Below are positions 50,633 through 64,000 of a stretch of 64,000 nt of DNA, piece by piece. The position numbers were made by a program, and so were the translations under genes. Origin of the DNA: Phycisphaerae bacterium (GTDB lineage: Bacteria; Planctomycetota; Phycisphaerae; Sedimentisphaerales; Anaerohalosphaeraceae); contig JACZKQ010000083.1 of the NCBI GenBank assembly GCA_014859965.1, positions 1 through 64,000 on the forward strand. Reading direction: 5' to 3'. The notes beneath the pieces are model-generated. The model was not told where the DNA came from. It did no database searches and worked only from the letters and a program-made list of their open reading frames with translations. How positions within the stretch are numbered: position 1 is the first letter of the stretch; every line of letters starts with the position of its first letter.

Positions 50633-50771
50633 ACCCCAAACATACCCCCATCAAAATGGTTGTCAACCATTTATTATCGGCCCGATCTCCCCACGACAAC
50701 AACGCAAATCACGTATCCCTGCCCTTGTGCCCGCGGGAACTACAAATTTTCTCCAAACTACTCAGGGCTGT

Positions 50772-50901
50772 CGCATTCTCCGGATGTCGCATGCCAAACC
50801 CCGGCCTGCAACGACTTTGGAGAGCAGAACCTTGGGCAGAGGCCAAAATAGGGAGCATTTGTTCGCCGGGGGGGGGATTTTGGCCTCTGGGGCCCCGACC
50901 C
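50772..50901. repeat. Hairpin-forming intergenic repeat, copy 3, right end truncated
   Basis: 130 bp starting CGCATTCTCC, with a perfect 13 bp stem CAGAGGCCAAAAT / ATTTTGGCCTCTG around a loop with nine G. The homology stops in GGGGCCCCGACC, so the right terminal repeat is missing. Confidence 0.75.
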
Positions 50902-51295
50902 GTGCGCTACCCAACTACAAAAACTCACCTTTGACTGGCATCGCGGCCAAATCCGCCCAATCGCCTGAAAGTACCGTCCTGGCCGTAGTCGGGCAGCGCA
51001 CGCTCTCTTAAAAGTTCATAGCCATTGAAAAAGGGGACTTGCTTTATCCCGTTCCAATTCGCCATGGTCACTGCAAATAAAATACCCAACCAGAGGGACT
51101 TACGGTTGGGCGCTGCTATAAACGCGGTAAAGGATTACGCATAAACACAAGCACCCTGCCGAGATAATCTTTGCATGGTAGCCCCAACATCATCCCGCTT
51201 TTCTACAGTTACCAAGAAGTGTCTTTTTGCTGCTAAACCCTTCACTTTTCACAACTACGAAGTCGGGGTGCATTACAGATATTGACCGTTCTTAG
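50902..51295. other. Intergenic region downstream of the MscS gene's 5' side
   Basis: About 390 bases with no gene I can support. A short hairpin CCCAACC...GGTTGGG lies near 51080-51107. It precedes the end of the minus-strand Rhs array. Confidence 0.45.
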
Positions 51296-52315: not shown

Positions 52316-52621
52316 TTATTCAGCATTTACCTCTTGCTTTAGCTTTCTATGTTGGGCTCGCAGTGCCACGTCCATGTGGGCGAGTCTGACTTGTGCAGGC
52401 ATCAGCCTGTAGGCATGGGCATACATAATCTGTGCTTCAGGGATGCGGTCGGCATCGTAGAGACAGTGTCCTCGCGTTTCGATGAAGAGGCCCAGTTCCT
52501 CGGAGGCCGTAAGCGATTGCAACAGGTGATTTAGCTCTACTTCTTCATCGTCGATCTTCTGCGGCCAATTTTTGTAATACTCGTCCGGATGGGTGTCACA
52601 GCCAGGGCAACAGGCTTCCAT
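52316..52621 (-). CDS. Small cassette protein, TPR-like helical
   Basis: 101 residues from the ATG at 52621, with AGGAAG nine bases upstream. The start MEACCPGCDTHP carries three Cys, followed by a helical stretch (ELNHLLQSLTASEELGLFIE, then YDADRIPEAQIMYAHAYRL) like one TPR. The frame is open upstream into Rhs fragment E, but that part is the repeat, not gene sequence. It stops 17 bases before the secreted tip and is probably co-transcribed. Function unknown. Confidence 0.5.
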   Translation of the reverse strand: MEACCPGCDTHPDEYYKNWPQKIDDEEVELNHLLQSLTASEELGLFIETRGHCLYDADRIPEAQIMYAHAYRLMPAQVRLAHMDVALRAQHRKLKQEVNAE

Positions 52622-52653
52622 GTTGAAGACTTCCTTGCCATCGTCCCACCGAG

Positions 52654-52972
52654 AATAATTAAAAGGGTCAGACCCCGTATTCCGCCTCTCCGCCTTCGCC
52701 ACGTAACTCTCCTGATCGTACAAACCTGCACTTGTCCCTCAATTTGCCGACGTCATCACGCGTGACCGGACTGCCCGCGATGGCCGTGTGCCGGTTCGTG
52801 ACCAACTCGACACTGAAGCTGACTGTGTCGTCGCTCAAGGTCTGCCTGCCTGTCCTGTTGCCGAGGCCGTCCATCACAAAAGAATCCTCCCGCCCCGGCC
52901 TGCCGCCACCCACAAGCTAATCGGCATCCGTCAAACGGTCCACATCGTCATAGGTGTACTCATTATACGGAG
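52654..52972 (-). pseudogene. Rhs/YD-repeat fragment E
   Basis: About 320 bp. Read on the minus strand it begins at CCGTATAATGAGTACACC (coding PYNEYTYDD) and ends at the palindrome. It has an in-frame TAG after TDAD. It matches fragments C and D closely and cannot make a full Rhs protein. Its upstream neighbour is the 214-residue membrane protein and its downstream neighbour the small TPR-like gene. Confidence 0.8.
52657..52676. repeat. Junction palindrome, copy E
   Basis: Contains AAAAGGGTCAGACCCC: AGGGTC-A-GACCCC is a near-perfect palindrome. It marks the border between Rhs fragment E and the cassette gene; identical copies border fragments D and C. Confidence 0.75.
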
Positions 52973-52987
52973 ACCGCGAACAGTAGA

Positions 52988-53632
52988 CTATGGTTTATCG
53001 ACTTTGGTTAGGGGCATTGCATCCACGACGTTGCCATTCTTATCGATTAAGACGATATCGCCGTCGCCAAAAACTATGGCGTCGAACAAGGCATCTGGCA
53101 AGCGAAGGTAGTACGGTTCGTCTGTCGCGTGACGTGTCAACTCAGGTTGGCTTAATTCTGCTCCTTTTTCAAGAGGATGCCGCAACAGACAAATGCCCAC
53201 ATGTCTCTTCTCCACTTTGCCATACGTGCGTAGCGCTTGGAACTCGCCATCCGACCCGCTTGCTTCAGAAGACGGACGAAATCCAAGTTGTGCCACTATT
53301 GCACATTCGTCAACAAAACGTATCTCTATTCTCGGGCCATAGACGGGATGCTGGTAGATAATGCAGTGATACAGTACGACTCCGCAATCATAACCAGGAC
53401 GGCTCAATAGCTCAATTGCACGCTCATAACGTGCTTGATCTACGTCCGCCCATGCACGTCCCGTGGCCAAGGCTTCTCTTAGAGATACTGCTGCCTCCTG
53501 GCGCATTTTCTCCCATTGCCCTTCTATCCTGTCAATAGCAGTCTCGGGTGTCTGTCGAAAATACTGCCATGAAACCAGTCCTCCGATTACAGCTATGACA
53601 GCCAAAACAATGCTGACGTATTTTCTGTTCAT
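52988..53632 (-). CDS. Cassette protein with N-terminal membrane anchor
   Basis: 214 residues from the ATG at 53632, with GGAGGCTCA directly before it. One helix (YVSIVLAVIAVIGGLVSWQY) anchors an outward-facing domain of mixed alpha/beta pattern (EGQWEKMRQEAAVSLREAL; YGPRIEIRFVDECAIVAQL; DGDIVLIDKNGNVVDAM). No catalytic motif is recognised. It sits between Rhs fragments D and E, starting 16 bases after the palindrome, so it is one array cassette. An immunity role is possible but inferred. Confidence 0.6.
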   Translation of the reverse strand: MNRKYVSIVLAVIAVIGGLVSWQYFRQTPETAIDRIEGQWEKMRQEAAVSLREALATGRAWADVDQARYERAIELLSRPGYDCGVVLYHCIIYQHPVYGPRIEIRFVDECAIVAQLGFRPSSEASGSDGEFQALRTYGKVEKRHVGICLLRHPLEKGAELSQPELTRHATDEPYYLRLPDALFDAIVFGDGDIVLIDKNGNVVDAMPLTKVDKP

Positions 53633-53645
53633 TGAGCCTCCGGGG

Positions 53646-53910
53646 AATAATTAAAAGGGTCAGACCCCGTATTCCGCCTCTCCGCCTTCGCCACGTAACT
53701 CTCCTGATCGTACAAACCTGCACTTGTCCCTCAATTTGCCGACGTCATCATGCGTGGCCGGACTGCCCGCGATGGCCGTGTGCCGGTTCGTGAGCGATTC
53801 GACACTGAAGCTGACTGCGTCGTCGCTCAAGGTCTGCCTGCCTGTTCCCAGATTGCCGTAAGCGTACTCATTATATGGGCGATGAAAGGTACCACGTATG
53901 ATTAGTCTAA
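53646..53910 (-). pseudogene. Rhs/YD-repeat fragment D
   Basis: About 265 bp, starting at CCATATAATGAGTACGC on the minus strand and ending at the palindrome. Upstream it carries ACTAATCATACGTGGTACC, the same flank as fragment B. It encodes part of a YD core (SDDAVSFSVESLTNRHTAIA) and has no start. Confidence 0.78.
53649..53668. repeat. Junction palindrome, copy D
   Basis: Same AAAAGGGTCAGACCCC block as at 52657, at the end of fragment D. Confidence 0.75.
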
Positions 53911-53915
53911 GCGAG

Positions 53916-54237
53916 AATAATTAAAAGGGTCAGACCCCGTATTCCGCCTCTCCGCCTTCGCCACGTAACTCTCCTGATCGTACAAACCTGCACTTGTCCC
54001 TCAATTTGCCGACGTCATCATGCGTGACCGGACTGCCCGCGATGGCCGTGTGCCGGTTCGTCAGCGACTCGACAGTGAAGCTGACCACGTCGTCGCTCAA
54101 GGTCTGGCTGCCTGTCCTGTCACCGAGGCCGTCCATCACAAAAGAATCCTCCCGGTCCGGCGTGCCGCCATCGACGAGATAATCGGCATCAGTCAAACGC
54201 TCCAGATCGTCGTAAGTGTACTCGTTATACGGGCCCT
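53916..54237 (-). pseudogene. Rhs/YD-repeat fragment C
   Basis: About 320 bp from CCCGTATAACGAGTACAC to the palindrome, encoding PYNEYTYDDLERLTDADYLV and onward without stop until the border. Unlike the others it has no cassette gene after the palindrome: fragment D follows at once. Confidence 0.78.
53919..53938. repeat. Junction palindrome, copy C (no cassette)
   Basis: Same block as copies D and E. On the minus strand it is followed directly by CGCTTAGACTAATCATACG, the coding tail of another cassette. Confidence 0.75.
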
Positions 54238-54255
54238 AAAAGCTACCGCGTACCT

Positions 54256-54987
54256 TTAATTCTGGCCGAATACCGACCAATCATGGCTCATATTTGCATA
54301 TTCCCATTTTGCAAGAAAGTACTCATATTGGAGAATTGCTATCTTTGGGCCCGAAAATGCGCACTTAAAATAAGTGACAGCCGCAGTCTCGTCGCCTTGT
54401 TCCAAACATTTCATGCCTGCCCAGAAATTTGCTCGGCATAGTCGTCGATCTTCAATAGACCCCCTTTCCTCATCCTTCCAATCATACAAGAATACATCAT
54501 CAGGCACTTTGTCCAGCAAAAAACCAGCTATCGTTGCGGTCCCTCGCCAACCACTGAATTCTCTATAGTCTTCTACCTTCCAATAACGCTTTAATTTCTT
54601 CAACGATTGTTTAACAAGTTTTTCATCACCAAGCCGCTGCCCCGCATACCATAAAATCAATGGAGTATCGGGTGCCCCCGGACAAGCAGCAAACTGTGTA
54701 TTAATAGACTCCTTCCAGAACTTTATCGCAGATGAAGTATTTTCAAGAAACCATTCTATCATTCCCAAATTGATAAAATCATCTTCGATTGTGTGTTCAG
54801 ATTTTTCGATGATCATTTCACAATTAACCTTTGCTATTTGCCATTCACCGATGTCCATTAGCACCATATTATGATTGCGCAAATCTCCTAATTCACCGCT
54901 TTGTTTATACTCACTTTCAAATAGGTCAAGACATTCAATGCTTGGTGTTTTCATAAAGCGTTCCCACATGCCACCGTTTGTTACCAC
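54256..54987 (-). CDS. Cassette protein, TPR-like, candidate immunity
   Basis: About 243 residues from a GTG at 54987 (GGAG seven bases upstream; ATG at 54969 possible). All-helical with repeat-like units (DFINLGMIEWFLENTSSAIK; FWAGMKCLEQGDETAAVTYF). No signal or membrane segment, so it is cytoplasmic. It resembles the TPR-type immunity proteins found after polymorphic toxin tips, without a toxin partner here. The frame is open through fragment B upstream, which gives a false 307-residue product. AT content is visibly higher than in flanking core genes. Confidence 0.6.
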   Translation of the reverse strand: MVTNGGMWERFMKTPSIECLDLFESEYKQSGELGDLRNHNMVLMDIGEWQIAKVNCEMIIEKSEHTIEDDFINLGMIEWFLENTSSAIKFWKESINTQFAACPGAPDTPLILWYAGQRLGDEKLVKQSLKKLKRYWKVEDYREFSGWRGTATIAGFLLDKVPDDVFLYDWKDEERGSIEDRRLCRANFWAGMKCLEQGDETAAVTYFKCAFSGPKIAILQYEYFLAKWEYANMSHDWSVFGQN

Positions 54988-55002
54988 AACAGTCTCCGGA
55001 TT

Positions 55003-55022
55003 AACTAAAGGGGTCAGCCCCC
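55003..55022. repeat. Junction palindrome, copy B (variant)
   Basis: AACTAAAGGGGTCAGCCCCC: the GGGGTCAG core is kept but the right arm is changed to CCCCC. It marks the end of fragment B. Confidence 0.6.
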
Positions 55023-55356
55023 GTTTCCACGGCTCGCCCGACTCGTCGACCATGCGAATCCGCCGGCCTAAGGCGTCGCAGGCATACTCGGCCACGTCAT
55101 TGCTCGACGAATCCTCGATCTTCACCACGCGGTTCTCATAGTCATAGGAGTACTTGGAGCCGTCCTTGTCGACAGTCAAATTCCCCGCATGTCATGCGTG
55201 ACCGAACTGCCCCCGATGGCCGTATACCGGTTCGTGACCGACTCGACAGCAAAGCTGACTGTGTCGTCGCTCAAAGTCTGGCTGCCTGTTCCCAGATTGC
55301 CGTAAGCGTACTCATTACATGGGCCCTCAAAGGTGCCACGTATGATTAGTCTAAGC
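55003..55356 (-). pseudogene. Rhs/YD-repeat fragment B
   Basis: About 350 bp. It begins with CGCTTAGACTAATCATACG and ATGTAATGAGTACGC on the minus strand, has a frame break near 55180-55195, and then encodes KYSYDYENRVVKIEDSSSND and ALGRRIRMVDESGEPWKRG. It extends further into the core than C-E. Confidence 0.78.
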
Positions 55357-56051: not shown

Positions 56052-56182
56052 CCCCAGGGATTGAATAGGGGTCAGTGAAGGCATGTGATGAATGTAAGAT
56101 GCACAGAAGAGGCGATCGCTAAGTACGCGGCGGCGTACTTGGCGGTTGGCGCAAGTGTATTTAACGTTGCGCGCAGGCTCAT

Positions 56183-58626: not shown

Positions 58627-58758
58627 TTATATCACTACTTGCGAAATAGCGGCATTGCTAAAATTGGCTTTGTTTTTCCAAATGCCCTTATTCGCACCTT
58701 GCGCCGGCCTTGAGCAGATTTTATGCGGAGGCAAGGCGATACTGGAAACTGATCTCAT
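58627..58758 (-). CDS. Possible 43-residue small ORF or leader peptide
   Basis: Starts MRSVSSIALPPHKICSRP. GGGAGGAG lies eight bases upstream and a consensus promoter about 35 bases before the ATG. It precedes the GATase lipoprotein by about 190 bases. Its sequence has no recognised family and may be non-coding repeat-like DNA. Confidence 0.35.
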   Translation of the reverse strand: MRSVSSIALPPHKICSRPAQGANKGIWKNKANFSNAAISQVVI

Positions 58759-58792
58759 TTTTTGGCTCCTCCCTTGGGTTTTCCTTTGATAT

Positions 58793-58820
58793 ATTATACC
58801 CTGTGTTTTGCGAATGTCAA
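58793..58820 (-). promoter_or_regulatory. Consensus sigma70 promoter
   Basis: On the minus strand, TTGACA, 16-base spacer, TATAAT, the best promoter match in the window. It drives the small ORF and probably the GATase lipoprotein through a leader of about 350 bases. Confidence 0.75.
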
Positions 58821-59177
58821 ATTTTTGGCGGGTATTTTTTAGAAAAAAGTGGTTTTGAGCGGGCGTGAAATTGGGTTGTTATTGGGTTGTTTCCGGGTGT
58901 TGGGCGACATAAAACGCGCAAAAACGCTCAAAAGCGGCTTAAAACGGCTTGAAAAGTGACGTAAATTGCAGATTTGGGGCGAAAAGGGGGGTGGAAAATG
59001 ACAGAAACAGCAAGAAACAGCGCGAAAAGTACGCTTGTGAGACGTGTTTTGGGTGCGCCGGGCGCGCTGTTTGTTGCAGTTTTGGCGTGTGTTATGTTAC
59101 TGTAAAGGCCGCAGCGTGCAGGAGTGCTTTTTATAATGCCGGACGGCAAAGTTCCGTCAGAAAGAGTGGTCTACTTC
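58821..59177. other. Upstream region of the PQQ-propeller gene
   Basis: About 350 bases, partly T/G rich on the plus strand, with no gene I can support. AGGAG at 59118-59122 could serve an alternative start at 59136. Confidence 0.45.
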
Positions 59178-60461: not shown

Positions 60462-60899
60462 ACCTCCGAGCAGTTCGGGTTCCTGAAATCCACGACCTGC
60501 CCGGACGGCGGGACTTGGATTGAGCGGACAAACGACTGGAGAGGCCGTGTCGCCACTCTGACCCGGGGCCAGGACGAACTGGTCGCCTATGACTACATCG
60601 GAGCGCGGGTGGCGAGGCGGTCATTCAGCGTGCCTGGGGTGGCGGCCGGGTTTGAGTATGACAATCTGGGCCGGGTTGAGGAGATCGATTATGGGGTTTC
60701 CGTGGCGAAGTTCGGGTATGGGTACTGGCTTAATAAGAACAATATCCATCGGAAAACGTTTGCACATCGGGCCGGCTCTCCGTATAATGAGTACACTTAC
60801 GACGATCCGGACCGTTTGACGGATGCCGACTATCTCGTCGATGGCGGCACGCCGGGGCGCGAGGCGGCCGCTGATGCGGGCGATTTGACGTGTGGATAA
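60462..60899 (+). pseudogene. Rhs/YD-repeat fragment F
   Basis: About 440 bp in one frame after a TAA near 60459: TCPDGGTWIERTNDWRGRVA, FEYDNLGRVEEIDYGVSVAK, PYNEYTYDDPDRLTDADYLV, ending in a stop after GDLTCG. There is no start signal. It lies 40 bases after the PQQ gene and is the longest fragment without a tip. Confidence 0.8.
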
Positions 60900-60942
60900 G
60901 GACAGTTGCAGACGTTTGAGCGGGACAGTCGCGCGCGGAGGG

Positions 60943-60980
60943 GAGAGGCAACATGGGGTTTGAGCCCTGTGGTTGCTCTC
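60943..60980. other. Hairpin between fragment F and its cassette
   Basis: GAGAGGCAACATGGGG and CCCTGTGGTTGCTCTC form an imperfect stem with a short TTTGAG loop. It is followed 21 bases later by a junction block at 61001-61034 containing TATATAATGAGACCCGG and CCCTTTAATTA. Confidence 0.4.
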
Positions 60981-61201
60981 TTCATAGTACGAGTGGAAAG
61001 GTCTATATATAATGAGACCCGGTCCCTTTAATTATGCCGGCATATGTTATAACTCCAGGTTAGCAATGAAGCTATGGTGCTACCCCGATGCTGTTGGGAA
61101 ACATGACCATGGCCAGGCACTGCACGAGGCCCAAAAGAACTTCTTGGAGTGCCAAGCATTGGTGGCGGCAAACCCCTAAAGTGATTATTCATGGTGACCA
61201 G

Positions 61202-61789
61202 ATGAATCAAGAGAATGAGGCGGTGAGTCGCCTTGATGAGAGAATACGTGAGGCATTTAAGGATGTTACGTATCCTGGAGACGACAAGATCGTTACTGGC
61301 ACCACGATGGAGGACGAGGAGGTTGCGAAGGCTTTAACAGGTAAGACATGGCGAGATATCGACGCAAAGTTTCTAAACGCGAATTGTATCCAAAGCATTT
61401 TCTTTTTGGATTTTCAGGCTTATAGGTTCTTCTTGCCTGCGTTCCTACTCGCCACAGTCCAAGACTATGGCAAGGTGCCTGAGATCGTGCACAATTTGGT
61501 ATCCACACTACTTGATCCTGTTACTGAGCAGAGACTGCGTTCCCCACGGTTGTACGAAGGAAAGGAGGCTGTTGACACGTATACTTTTTTGTGCCGTATG
61601 AATCCTCTAACCTATAGGCAAGTAGAGGTTGTGGTGGACGTTCTCAAGTTTCTGTGCGATTATCATATGAGAGATTTCCGTCATAATGAGCCGCATTTCG
61701 CATTACAAGGATATTGGCTGAAGAGGCTGGAACTGGAGAAAAGCAATAGGCGACAGGAAAATTTGAGGGGTCAGGAGCCGTTGTTTTGA
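61202..61789 (+). CDS. Cassette protein, helical, DUF6714-like candidate immunity
   Basis: 195 residues from the ATG at 61202; no good ribosome site is visible and upstream ATG starts are non-coding. Cytoplasmic, helical (FLDFQAYRFFLPAFLLATVQ; LTYRQVEVVVDVLKFLCDYH). The central block resembles DUF6714-type proteins often found near polymorphic toxins; this is from memory and not verified. It ends a few bases before fragment G and is bordered by AGGGGTCAGGAGCC. Confidence 0.6.
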   Translation: MNQENEAVSRLDERIREAFKDVTYPGDDKIVTGTTMEDEEVAKALTGKTWRDIDAKFLNANCIQSIFFLDFQAYRFFLPAFLLATVQDYGKVPEIVHNLVSTLLDPVTEQRLRSPRLYEGKEAVDTYTFLCRMNPLTYRQVEVVVDVLKFLCDYHMRDFRHNEPHFALQGYWLKRLELEKSNRRQENLRGQEPLF

Positions 61790-63574: not shown

Positions 63575-63966
63575 ACGCAGGCGAACCCTATAATGAGTAT
63601 ACCTACGATGATTTGGATCGCCTGACGGATGTCACCTACCATAGCGCTGAGACGGAAATGTTCAACATGGACAACCTGGGCAATCGAACGAGTGTGGTCA
63701 AGCGCGATACGGCCGTCGACACTTATGCGCTCGACAGCGCGACGAACCGTTACGACTTATCCGCGGGCGGGCCGTATGAGGTGACGTGTGCCTACGATGC
63801 GGCCGGAAACACGACACGGGACAAGGACAACTACGCATACTGGTACGACTACGAGAATCGCGTCGTGAAGATTGAGGATTCGTCGAGCAATGACGTGGCG
63901 GAGTATGGCCGTTATGAGCGGGTGCGGGCGTTGGCATGCGGGGCACGCGGCTGTTGTGGGGGTTGA
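63575..63966 (+). pseudogene. Rhs/YD-repeat fragment H
   Basis: About 330 bp nearly identical to the start of fragment G (from GCAGGCGAACCCTATAATGAG), ending abruptly after DSSSNDVAEY; the remaining codons to the stop at 63966 are unrelated. With G it forms a direct repeat around the toxin-immunity pair. The last bases of the window (TTCGCTGCGCTCGCAATGAC) look like another dispersed repeat. Confidence 0.8.
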
Positions 63967-64000
63967 GATTGCTTCGCTGCGCTCGCAATGACATTGTTGC

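What the first reader, a model, noticed from the sequence alone, without database searches (positions are those of the whole stretch)
52657..55022. Recurrent palindrome at Rhs fragment/cassette borders
Fragments C, D and E all end at the same block AAAAGGGTCAGACCCC (53919, 53649, 52657), a GGGGTC-W-GACCCC palindrome followed on the cassette side by TTTTAATTATTC. Fragment B ends at a variant (GGGGTCAGCCCCC), and shortened forms lie at 56064-56075 and 61766-61779. Cassettes start within about 30-50 bases of it. A fixed border argues for a specific process, for example hairpin recognition by a Y1/HUH (REP-associated or IS200/IS605-like) transposase, rather than random recombination.
Basis: partly seen in the sequence, partly recalled or inferred. 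Interest (0 to 1): 0.9.

Follow-up and report, generated by a model that had tools for sequence, protein, structure and literature searches.

The report
Transposase hairpin ends border Rhs fragments
The hairpin that closes off several broken Rhs toxin-gene fragments in this planctomycete is the end sequence of a small single-strand DNA transposase found in the same genome, and copied Rhs fragments stop exactly at that end, which suggests the transposase helps rearrange these toxin loci.

Summary
The palindrome is real and is not ancestral rhs sequence. It is one end (24 bp hairpin plus tail, GGGGTCTGACCCCTTTAATTATTC) of a RAYT/TIRYT-type Y1 HUH transposase family in Planctomycetota. The one gene in this genome that passes the Pfam Y1 cut-off (contig C81, cut by the contig end) has its stop codon inside the same hairpin; two relatives carry the gene between inverted copies of it. 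Sister families with other hairpins and the tail CCTTTAATT also sit at rhs borders.

Fragments C, D and E are copies of one junction, not three events; B shares its junction with a second contig. In eight of nine copy families sequence is 71-100% identical up to the outer end of the tail and random beyond it. In rhs contigs 38 homology breakpoints fall within 8 bp of tail ends (shift control mean 1.7, maximum 11 in 1000). In four related genomes the transposase gene lies in or beside an Rhs cassette array, in one exactly at the rhs fragment end. Most rhs arrays of relatives lack such hairpins.

Best reading: the transposase cuts and joins at this end, so rhs fragments carrying it are copied or spliced to new cassettes there. 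Activity is inferred, not shown.

The parts
52653..52676 (-). REP1/TIR unit at 3' end of rhs fragment E (GGGGTCTGACCCTTTTAATTATTC)
53645..53668 (-). REP1/TIR unit at 3' end of rhs fragment D
53915..53938 (-). REP1/TIR unit at 3' end of rhs fragment C
54999..55022 (-). REP1/TIR variant at 3' end of rhs fragment B (GGGGGCTGACCCCTTTAGTTAATC); same junction as contig C58:49668
54242..54264 (+). REP2 (GCTACCGCGTACC + TTTAATTCTG) at the 5' border of rhs fragment C, tail pointing away from the fragment
53888..53909 (+). degenerate REP2-like sequence at the 5' border of rhs fragment D
   Evidence: read directly; matches 55332-55351
55332..55353 (+). degenerate REP2-like sequence at the 5' border of the rhs fragment at 55192-55331
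61012..61037 (+). REP4 (GAGACCCGGTCCCTTTAATTATGC) between rhs remnant and cassette; second copy at contig position 64338
61767..61779 (+).
52677..52970 (-). rhs fragment E with 3' module N
53669..53887 (-). rhs fragment D (internal deletion) with 3' module N
53939..54236 (-). rhs fragment C with 3' module N
54256..55179 (-). ORF that runs from rhs fragment B in frame through REP1 (RGLTPLV) into cassette B (307 aa, no confident family)
52988..53632 (-). cassette D (214 aa, signal-anchor-like N terminus), start codon 13 bp after the REP tail
52316..52723 (-). cassette E ORF (135 aa), reads through REP1 as TGSDPFNYS

Best explanation
The palindrome plus its tail (about 24-30 bp) is the recognition end of a RAYT/TIRYT-type Y1 HUH single-strand transposase family resident in this planctomycete. 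The autonomous unit is TIR-transposase-TIR, with tails pointing outward and the gene's stop codon inside the right-hand hairpin. Solo copies are REP-like repeats. The enzyme most likely binds the hairpin and cuts just beyond the tail (after TTTAATTATTC). When such an end lies next to an rhs fragment, rhs sequence linked to it can be copied or excised with a fixed right end and joined to other DNA. The outer end of an existing copy also serves as a joining site. That gives rhs fragment, hairpin, tail, then a different cassette each time. Shown by sequence: the gene, its inverted ends, the dispersed copies, and homology stopping at the tail end. Inferred: the cut position, that the transposase made these joins, and that rhs DNA moves as cargo.
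For: Own Y1_Tnp/REP_Tyr_transpos gene ends ...GRPRNGV* inside GGGGTCTGACCCCTTTAGTTC. Relatives G011 and G019: GAATAACTAAAGGGGTC...gene...GACCCCTTTA(A/G)TTATTC. Unrelated sites in relatives share only the ~30 bp unit. A second gene family in this genome (C198, internally deleted) ends in a sister hairpin found at rhs 5' borders. 38 same-side homology breakpoints lie within 8 bp of tail ends against mean 1.7, maximum 11 in 1000 shifts, and 4 on the opposite side. Eight of nine copy families: inner identity 71-100%, outer identity equal to shuffled. The family is in 93 of 298 genomes of the class, and 20 of the first 30 loci show clear flanking inverted repeats, often over the stop codon. G221: rhs ORF ends at the left TIR of an element with this same hairpin, with a non-rhs ORF beyond the right TIR. 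G006: element directly after an rhs C-terminal region, with a 29-bp rhs piece caught between two hairpins. G229 and G283: element a few genes downstream of rhs. Only solved relative by sequence is E. coli TnpA_REP, 4er8.
Against: No excision or insertion event was observed and no empty site was available. C/D/E are one junction copied, so independent REP1 events at rhs borders number about four (C/D/E, B with C58:49668, C58:63361, C179:4034). Rhs arrays of most relatives (G032, G012, G001, G009, G020, G391) have no such hairpins at their borders, so ordinary recombination suffices there. The own-genome gene is cut by the contig end, so its activity is unknown. The rhs contigs are repeat-rich and come from a draft assembly.
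Confidence: 0.65

Rival explanations
1. Passive marker: solo hairpins were inserted by the transposase into decaying rhs DNA because it is dispensable; later segmental duplication and homologous recombination in the rhs array spread one junction.
For: C/D/E and B/C58 are copies of older junctions. The same hairpins lie in other genes and gaps (C8, C53, C75, C82, C116, C58:71503). Rhs orphan modules are known to recombine by homology (PMC3967940).
Against: Homologous recombination does not explain why copies share rhs plus hairpin and then differ from the first bases beyond the tail, repeatedly and for several hairpin families. In G221 the element separates rhs from non-rhs rather than interrupting continuous rhs.
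Confidence: 0.25
2. The hairpin is a transcription terminator or mRNA-stability element between rhs remnants and cassettes.
For: The three C/D/E copies match a simple terminator pattern.
Against: Terminator-like hits in the region are no more frequent than in shuffles (8 against 5.8). Several copies are read through in open frames (RGLTPL, GSDPFN). It does not explain identical ends on transposase genes. No Rfam match.
Confidence: 0.05
3. Cassette-specific integration: the hairpin tail is an attachment site at which cassettes themselves insert, integron-like, with the transposase as the integrase.
For: Cassettes differ, each starts shortly after the tail, and cassette B lies between hairpins with tails pointing inward.
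Against: No common sequence was seen at the far end of cassettes. The gene-bearing elements have the opposite geometry, tails outward. No cassette was found at two sites with the same hairpin border.
Confidence: 0.05

Closest known systems
[quoted passage not shown]
   Same: Y1 HUH gene flanked by inverted repeats, some self-complementary, sharing motif GGGGWSAS (here GGGGTCAG), overlapping the gene 3' end, with dispersed repeat families.
   Different: Here the repeats mark borders of Rhs fragments and of copied segments; no such role was found described there. Transposase subclass membership not tested.
REPtron / RAYT with REP and REPIN elements (PMC2817692, PMC3116915, PMC6006769)
   Same: REP-associated tyrosine transposase gene between two inverted hairpins; dispersed solo hairpins; closest solved relative TnpA_REP of E. 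coli.
   Different: No GT[AG]G foot beside the hairpin; low copy number (about 14 of this family, not hundreds); conserved 3' tail TTTAATT.
IS200/IS605 insertion sequences
   Same: Y1 HUH fold and subterminal hairpins.
   Different: Ends here are symmetric inverted repeats; protein matches the IS200 NCBIfam model only weakly (18.9 of 55 bits).
Rhs orphan C-terminal modules (e.g. Salmonella LT2, PMC3967940)
   Same: Array of rhs fragments each followed by a cassette.
   Different: Fragments here stop well before the core end and join cassettes through a transposase hairpin instead of the DPxG region.

Membership tests
RAYT / TIRYT Y1 transposase | Y1_Tnp (PF01797) domain | tested here: met
   1e-14 in L057, 2e-7 in own C81 gene, both over the cut-off
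RAYT / TIRYT Y1 transposase | HUH and tyrosine motifs | tested here: met
   HWH and YYLTLMRYVESN read in the translations; aligned to 4er8
RAYT / TIRYT Y1 transposase | NCBIfam NF047646 REP_Tyr_transpos over its cut-off | tested here: not met
   59 bits against cut-off 80, though it is the best model; so related, not an equivalog
TIRtron | gene flanked by inverted repeats | tested here: met
   G011, G019, G221 and about 20 of 30 class members; own C81 copy lacks its left end because of the contig end
TIRtron | GGGGWSAS motif in the repeats | tested here: met
   GGGGTCAG on the complementary strand of the hairpin
TIRYT subclass 2.1 | C-terminal DnaA-like HTH domain / subclass placement | not tested
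   No reference alignment at hand; protein is only 227 aa
REP (GTAG/GTGG class) | GT[AG]G tetranucleotide at hairpin foot | tested here: not met
   Foot is GAAAWT/GGAA in most copies; GTAG or GTGG is not conserved at the hairpin foot
Active transposon | excision or insertion in vivo, cleavage in vitro | not testable with these tools
   sequence only

The most novel reading that the evidence does not exclude
A RAYT/TIRYT transposase family actively diversifies polymorphic-toxin (Rhs) loci: it copies rhs segments that carry its end and splices them to new cassettes at a fixed point, a homology-independent route to cassette exchange.
Probability: 0.4. Interest if true: 0.82.

Novelty: new variant of a known kind. 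Interest (0 to 1): 0.62.

Why it matters
How Rhs tips and orphan cassettes are exchanged is usually put down to homologous recombination. A domesticated-looking single-strand transposase whose ends coincide with rhs/cassette joins would give a testable, homology-independent mechanism, and a cellular consequence for RAYTs, whose function is an open question. No paper in the searched library that links the two was recognised.

Tried and rejected
Ancestral rhs sequence: rejected, the palindrome is in non-rhs genes and on transposase genes. Known RNA element: no Rfam match. Anti-phage defence genes among cassettes: no PADLOC match. Three independent C/D/E insertions: rejected, one copied junction. 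The X repeat of G011/G019, first suspected to be rhs, has no rhs match and only about half of its copies end at the hairpin. General Rhs feature: rejected, most rhs arrays of relatives lack the hairpins. No exact empty site was found.

Full report
Observation. On the minus strand, the sense strand of the rhs fragments, it reads GGGGTCTGACCCTTTTAATTATTC from 52676, 53668 and 53938, and GGGGGCTGACCCCTTTAGTTAATC from 55022. Genome-wide GGGTCWGACCC occurs 11 times against none for the reversed pattern.

Copies in this genome. Counting near variants with the tail there are 14: seven at rhs borders (window x4, C58:49668, C58:63361, C179:4034), one at a transposase gene (C81), six elsewhere (C8, C53, C58:71503, C75, C82, C116), among them in-frame insertions in what look like ordinary genes. 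C142 has the core without the tail and is probably chance.

The transposase. One gene passes the Pfam Y1_Tnp cut-off in this genome, C81:2459-3052 minus. It ends RGRPRNGV*, and GGG GTC TGA is the first part of the hairpin. A second, internally deleted relative in C198 ends KGRPKKVPDTFS* over a sister hairpin GTACCGGACACCTTTAGTTAAC. In same-family relatives G011 and G019 (Planctomycetota MAGs QNBS01 and JAGHBX01) the intact gene has inverted copies at both ends: GAATAACTAAAGGGGTC ... GACCCCTTTA(A/G)TTATTC. Unrelated sites in these relatives share only about 30 bp, so the solo unit is REP-like. Across the class 93 of 298 genomes have the gene. Of the first 30 loci about two thirds show flanking inverted repeats of varying hairpin sequence, often over the stop codon.

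Sister hairpins. CCTTTAATT is enriched in this genome, 52 against 13 for the reversed pattern, and clusters in rhs contigs C6, C40, C58, C152 and C179. At least four hairpin types use this tail. Where polarity is clear, the tails at rhs fragments point outward: REP1 or REP4 at 3' borders, REP2 or REP3 at 5' borders. That is the geometry of the ends around the transposase gene itself.

Breakpoints. All-against-all alignment of rhs-bearing contigs gave 578 homology ends. 38 lie within 8 bp of a tail end on the expected side. Circular shifts gave a mean of 1.7 and a maximum of 11 in 1000; the opposite side gave 4; 21 of 41 tails are involved. The alignment ends are not all independent because copies are related, so the ratio matters more than the count. 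Pair by pair, eight of nine copy families are 71-100% identical in the 56 bp before the unit and no more alike than shuffled sequence in the 60 bp after it. The ninth (REP2) shares only the hairpin itself. The families include two from relatives that have nothing to do with rhs, so the behaviour belongs to the element.

Elements inside Rhs loci of other genera. In G221 an rhs ORF ends at the left inverted repeat of a complete element with this very hairpin, and a different ORF follows the right repeat and a short run of repeated tails. In G006 the element follows an rhs C-terminal region, and 29 bp of rhs lie between two hairpins beyond it. In G229 and G283 it is a few genes downstream of rhs. 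That is four of 22 order-level transposase loci within about 2.5 kb of rhs. A rough expectation from rhs density is below one (estimate, not a controlled test). Repeated tails at outer ends (C58:71503, C179:4034, contig C152:64819-64846, G221, G260) fit repeated joining at that point.

Limits. Independent REP1 events at rhs borders in this genome number about four. Most rhs arrays in relatives have no such hairpins. No event was observed, and the assembly is draft. The step from 'ends coincide with joins' to 'the transposase made the joins' is inference.

Comparison. By gene and repeats this matches TIRtrons/TIRYTs and REPtrons/RAYTs (PMC3733652, PMC2817692, PMC6006769). It lacks the GT[AG]G foot of canonical REPs, and the protein falls below the NCBIfam equivalog cut-off. 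What is new, as far as the searched papers show, is the coincidence with Rhs fragment borders.

Noticed in passing
window 63959-63998: The last rhs fragment ends in another repeat, GAGATTGCTTCGCTGCGCTCGCAATGAC, also in C40 and three times in C29.
   Followed up: no
window 53939-54000, 60893-60950: Module N, about 70 bp, lies between different rhs remnants and hairpins here and in C58 (x4), C179, C184 and C152:64161; origin unknown.
   Followed up: partly
window 50762-50903: Multi-copy repeat of about 140 bp, 83-90% identical in C6, C29, C30, C53, C58.
   Followed up: no
window 58755-59041: Multi-copy repeat of about 290 bp, 84-85% identical in C30 and C184.
   Followed up: no
L053 8345 (C53), L126 4586 (C75), L055 3106 (C116): The hairpin sits inside long ORFs in frame (KGSDPF / KGSGPFN), for example at the N terminus of a predicted membrane protein.
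   Followed up: partly
L301 7467-7510: 29 bp of rhs coding sequence lie alone between two hairpins beside the transposase in G006.
   Followed up: partly
L328 5330-5520: G260 has a long run of hairpins and tails in tandem near its transposase, as if ends were joined repeatedly.
   Followed up: no
L059, L060, L061, L068, L232: Unidentified repeat X in G011/G019; some copies end exactly at the hairpin tail with ragged left ends.
   Followed up: partly
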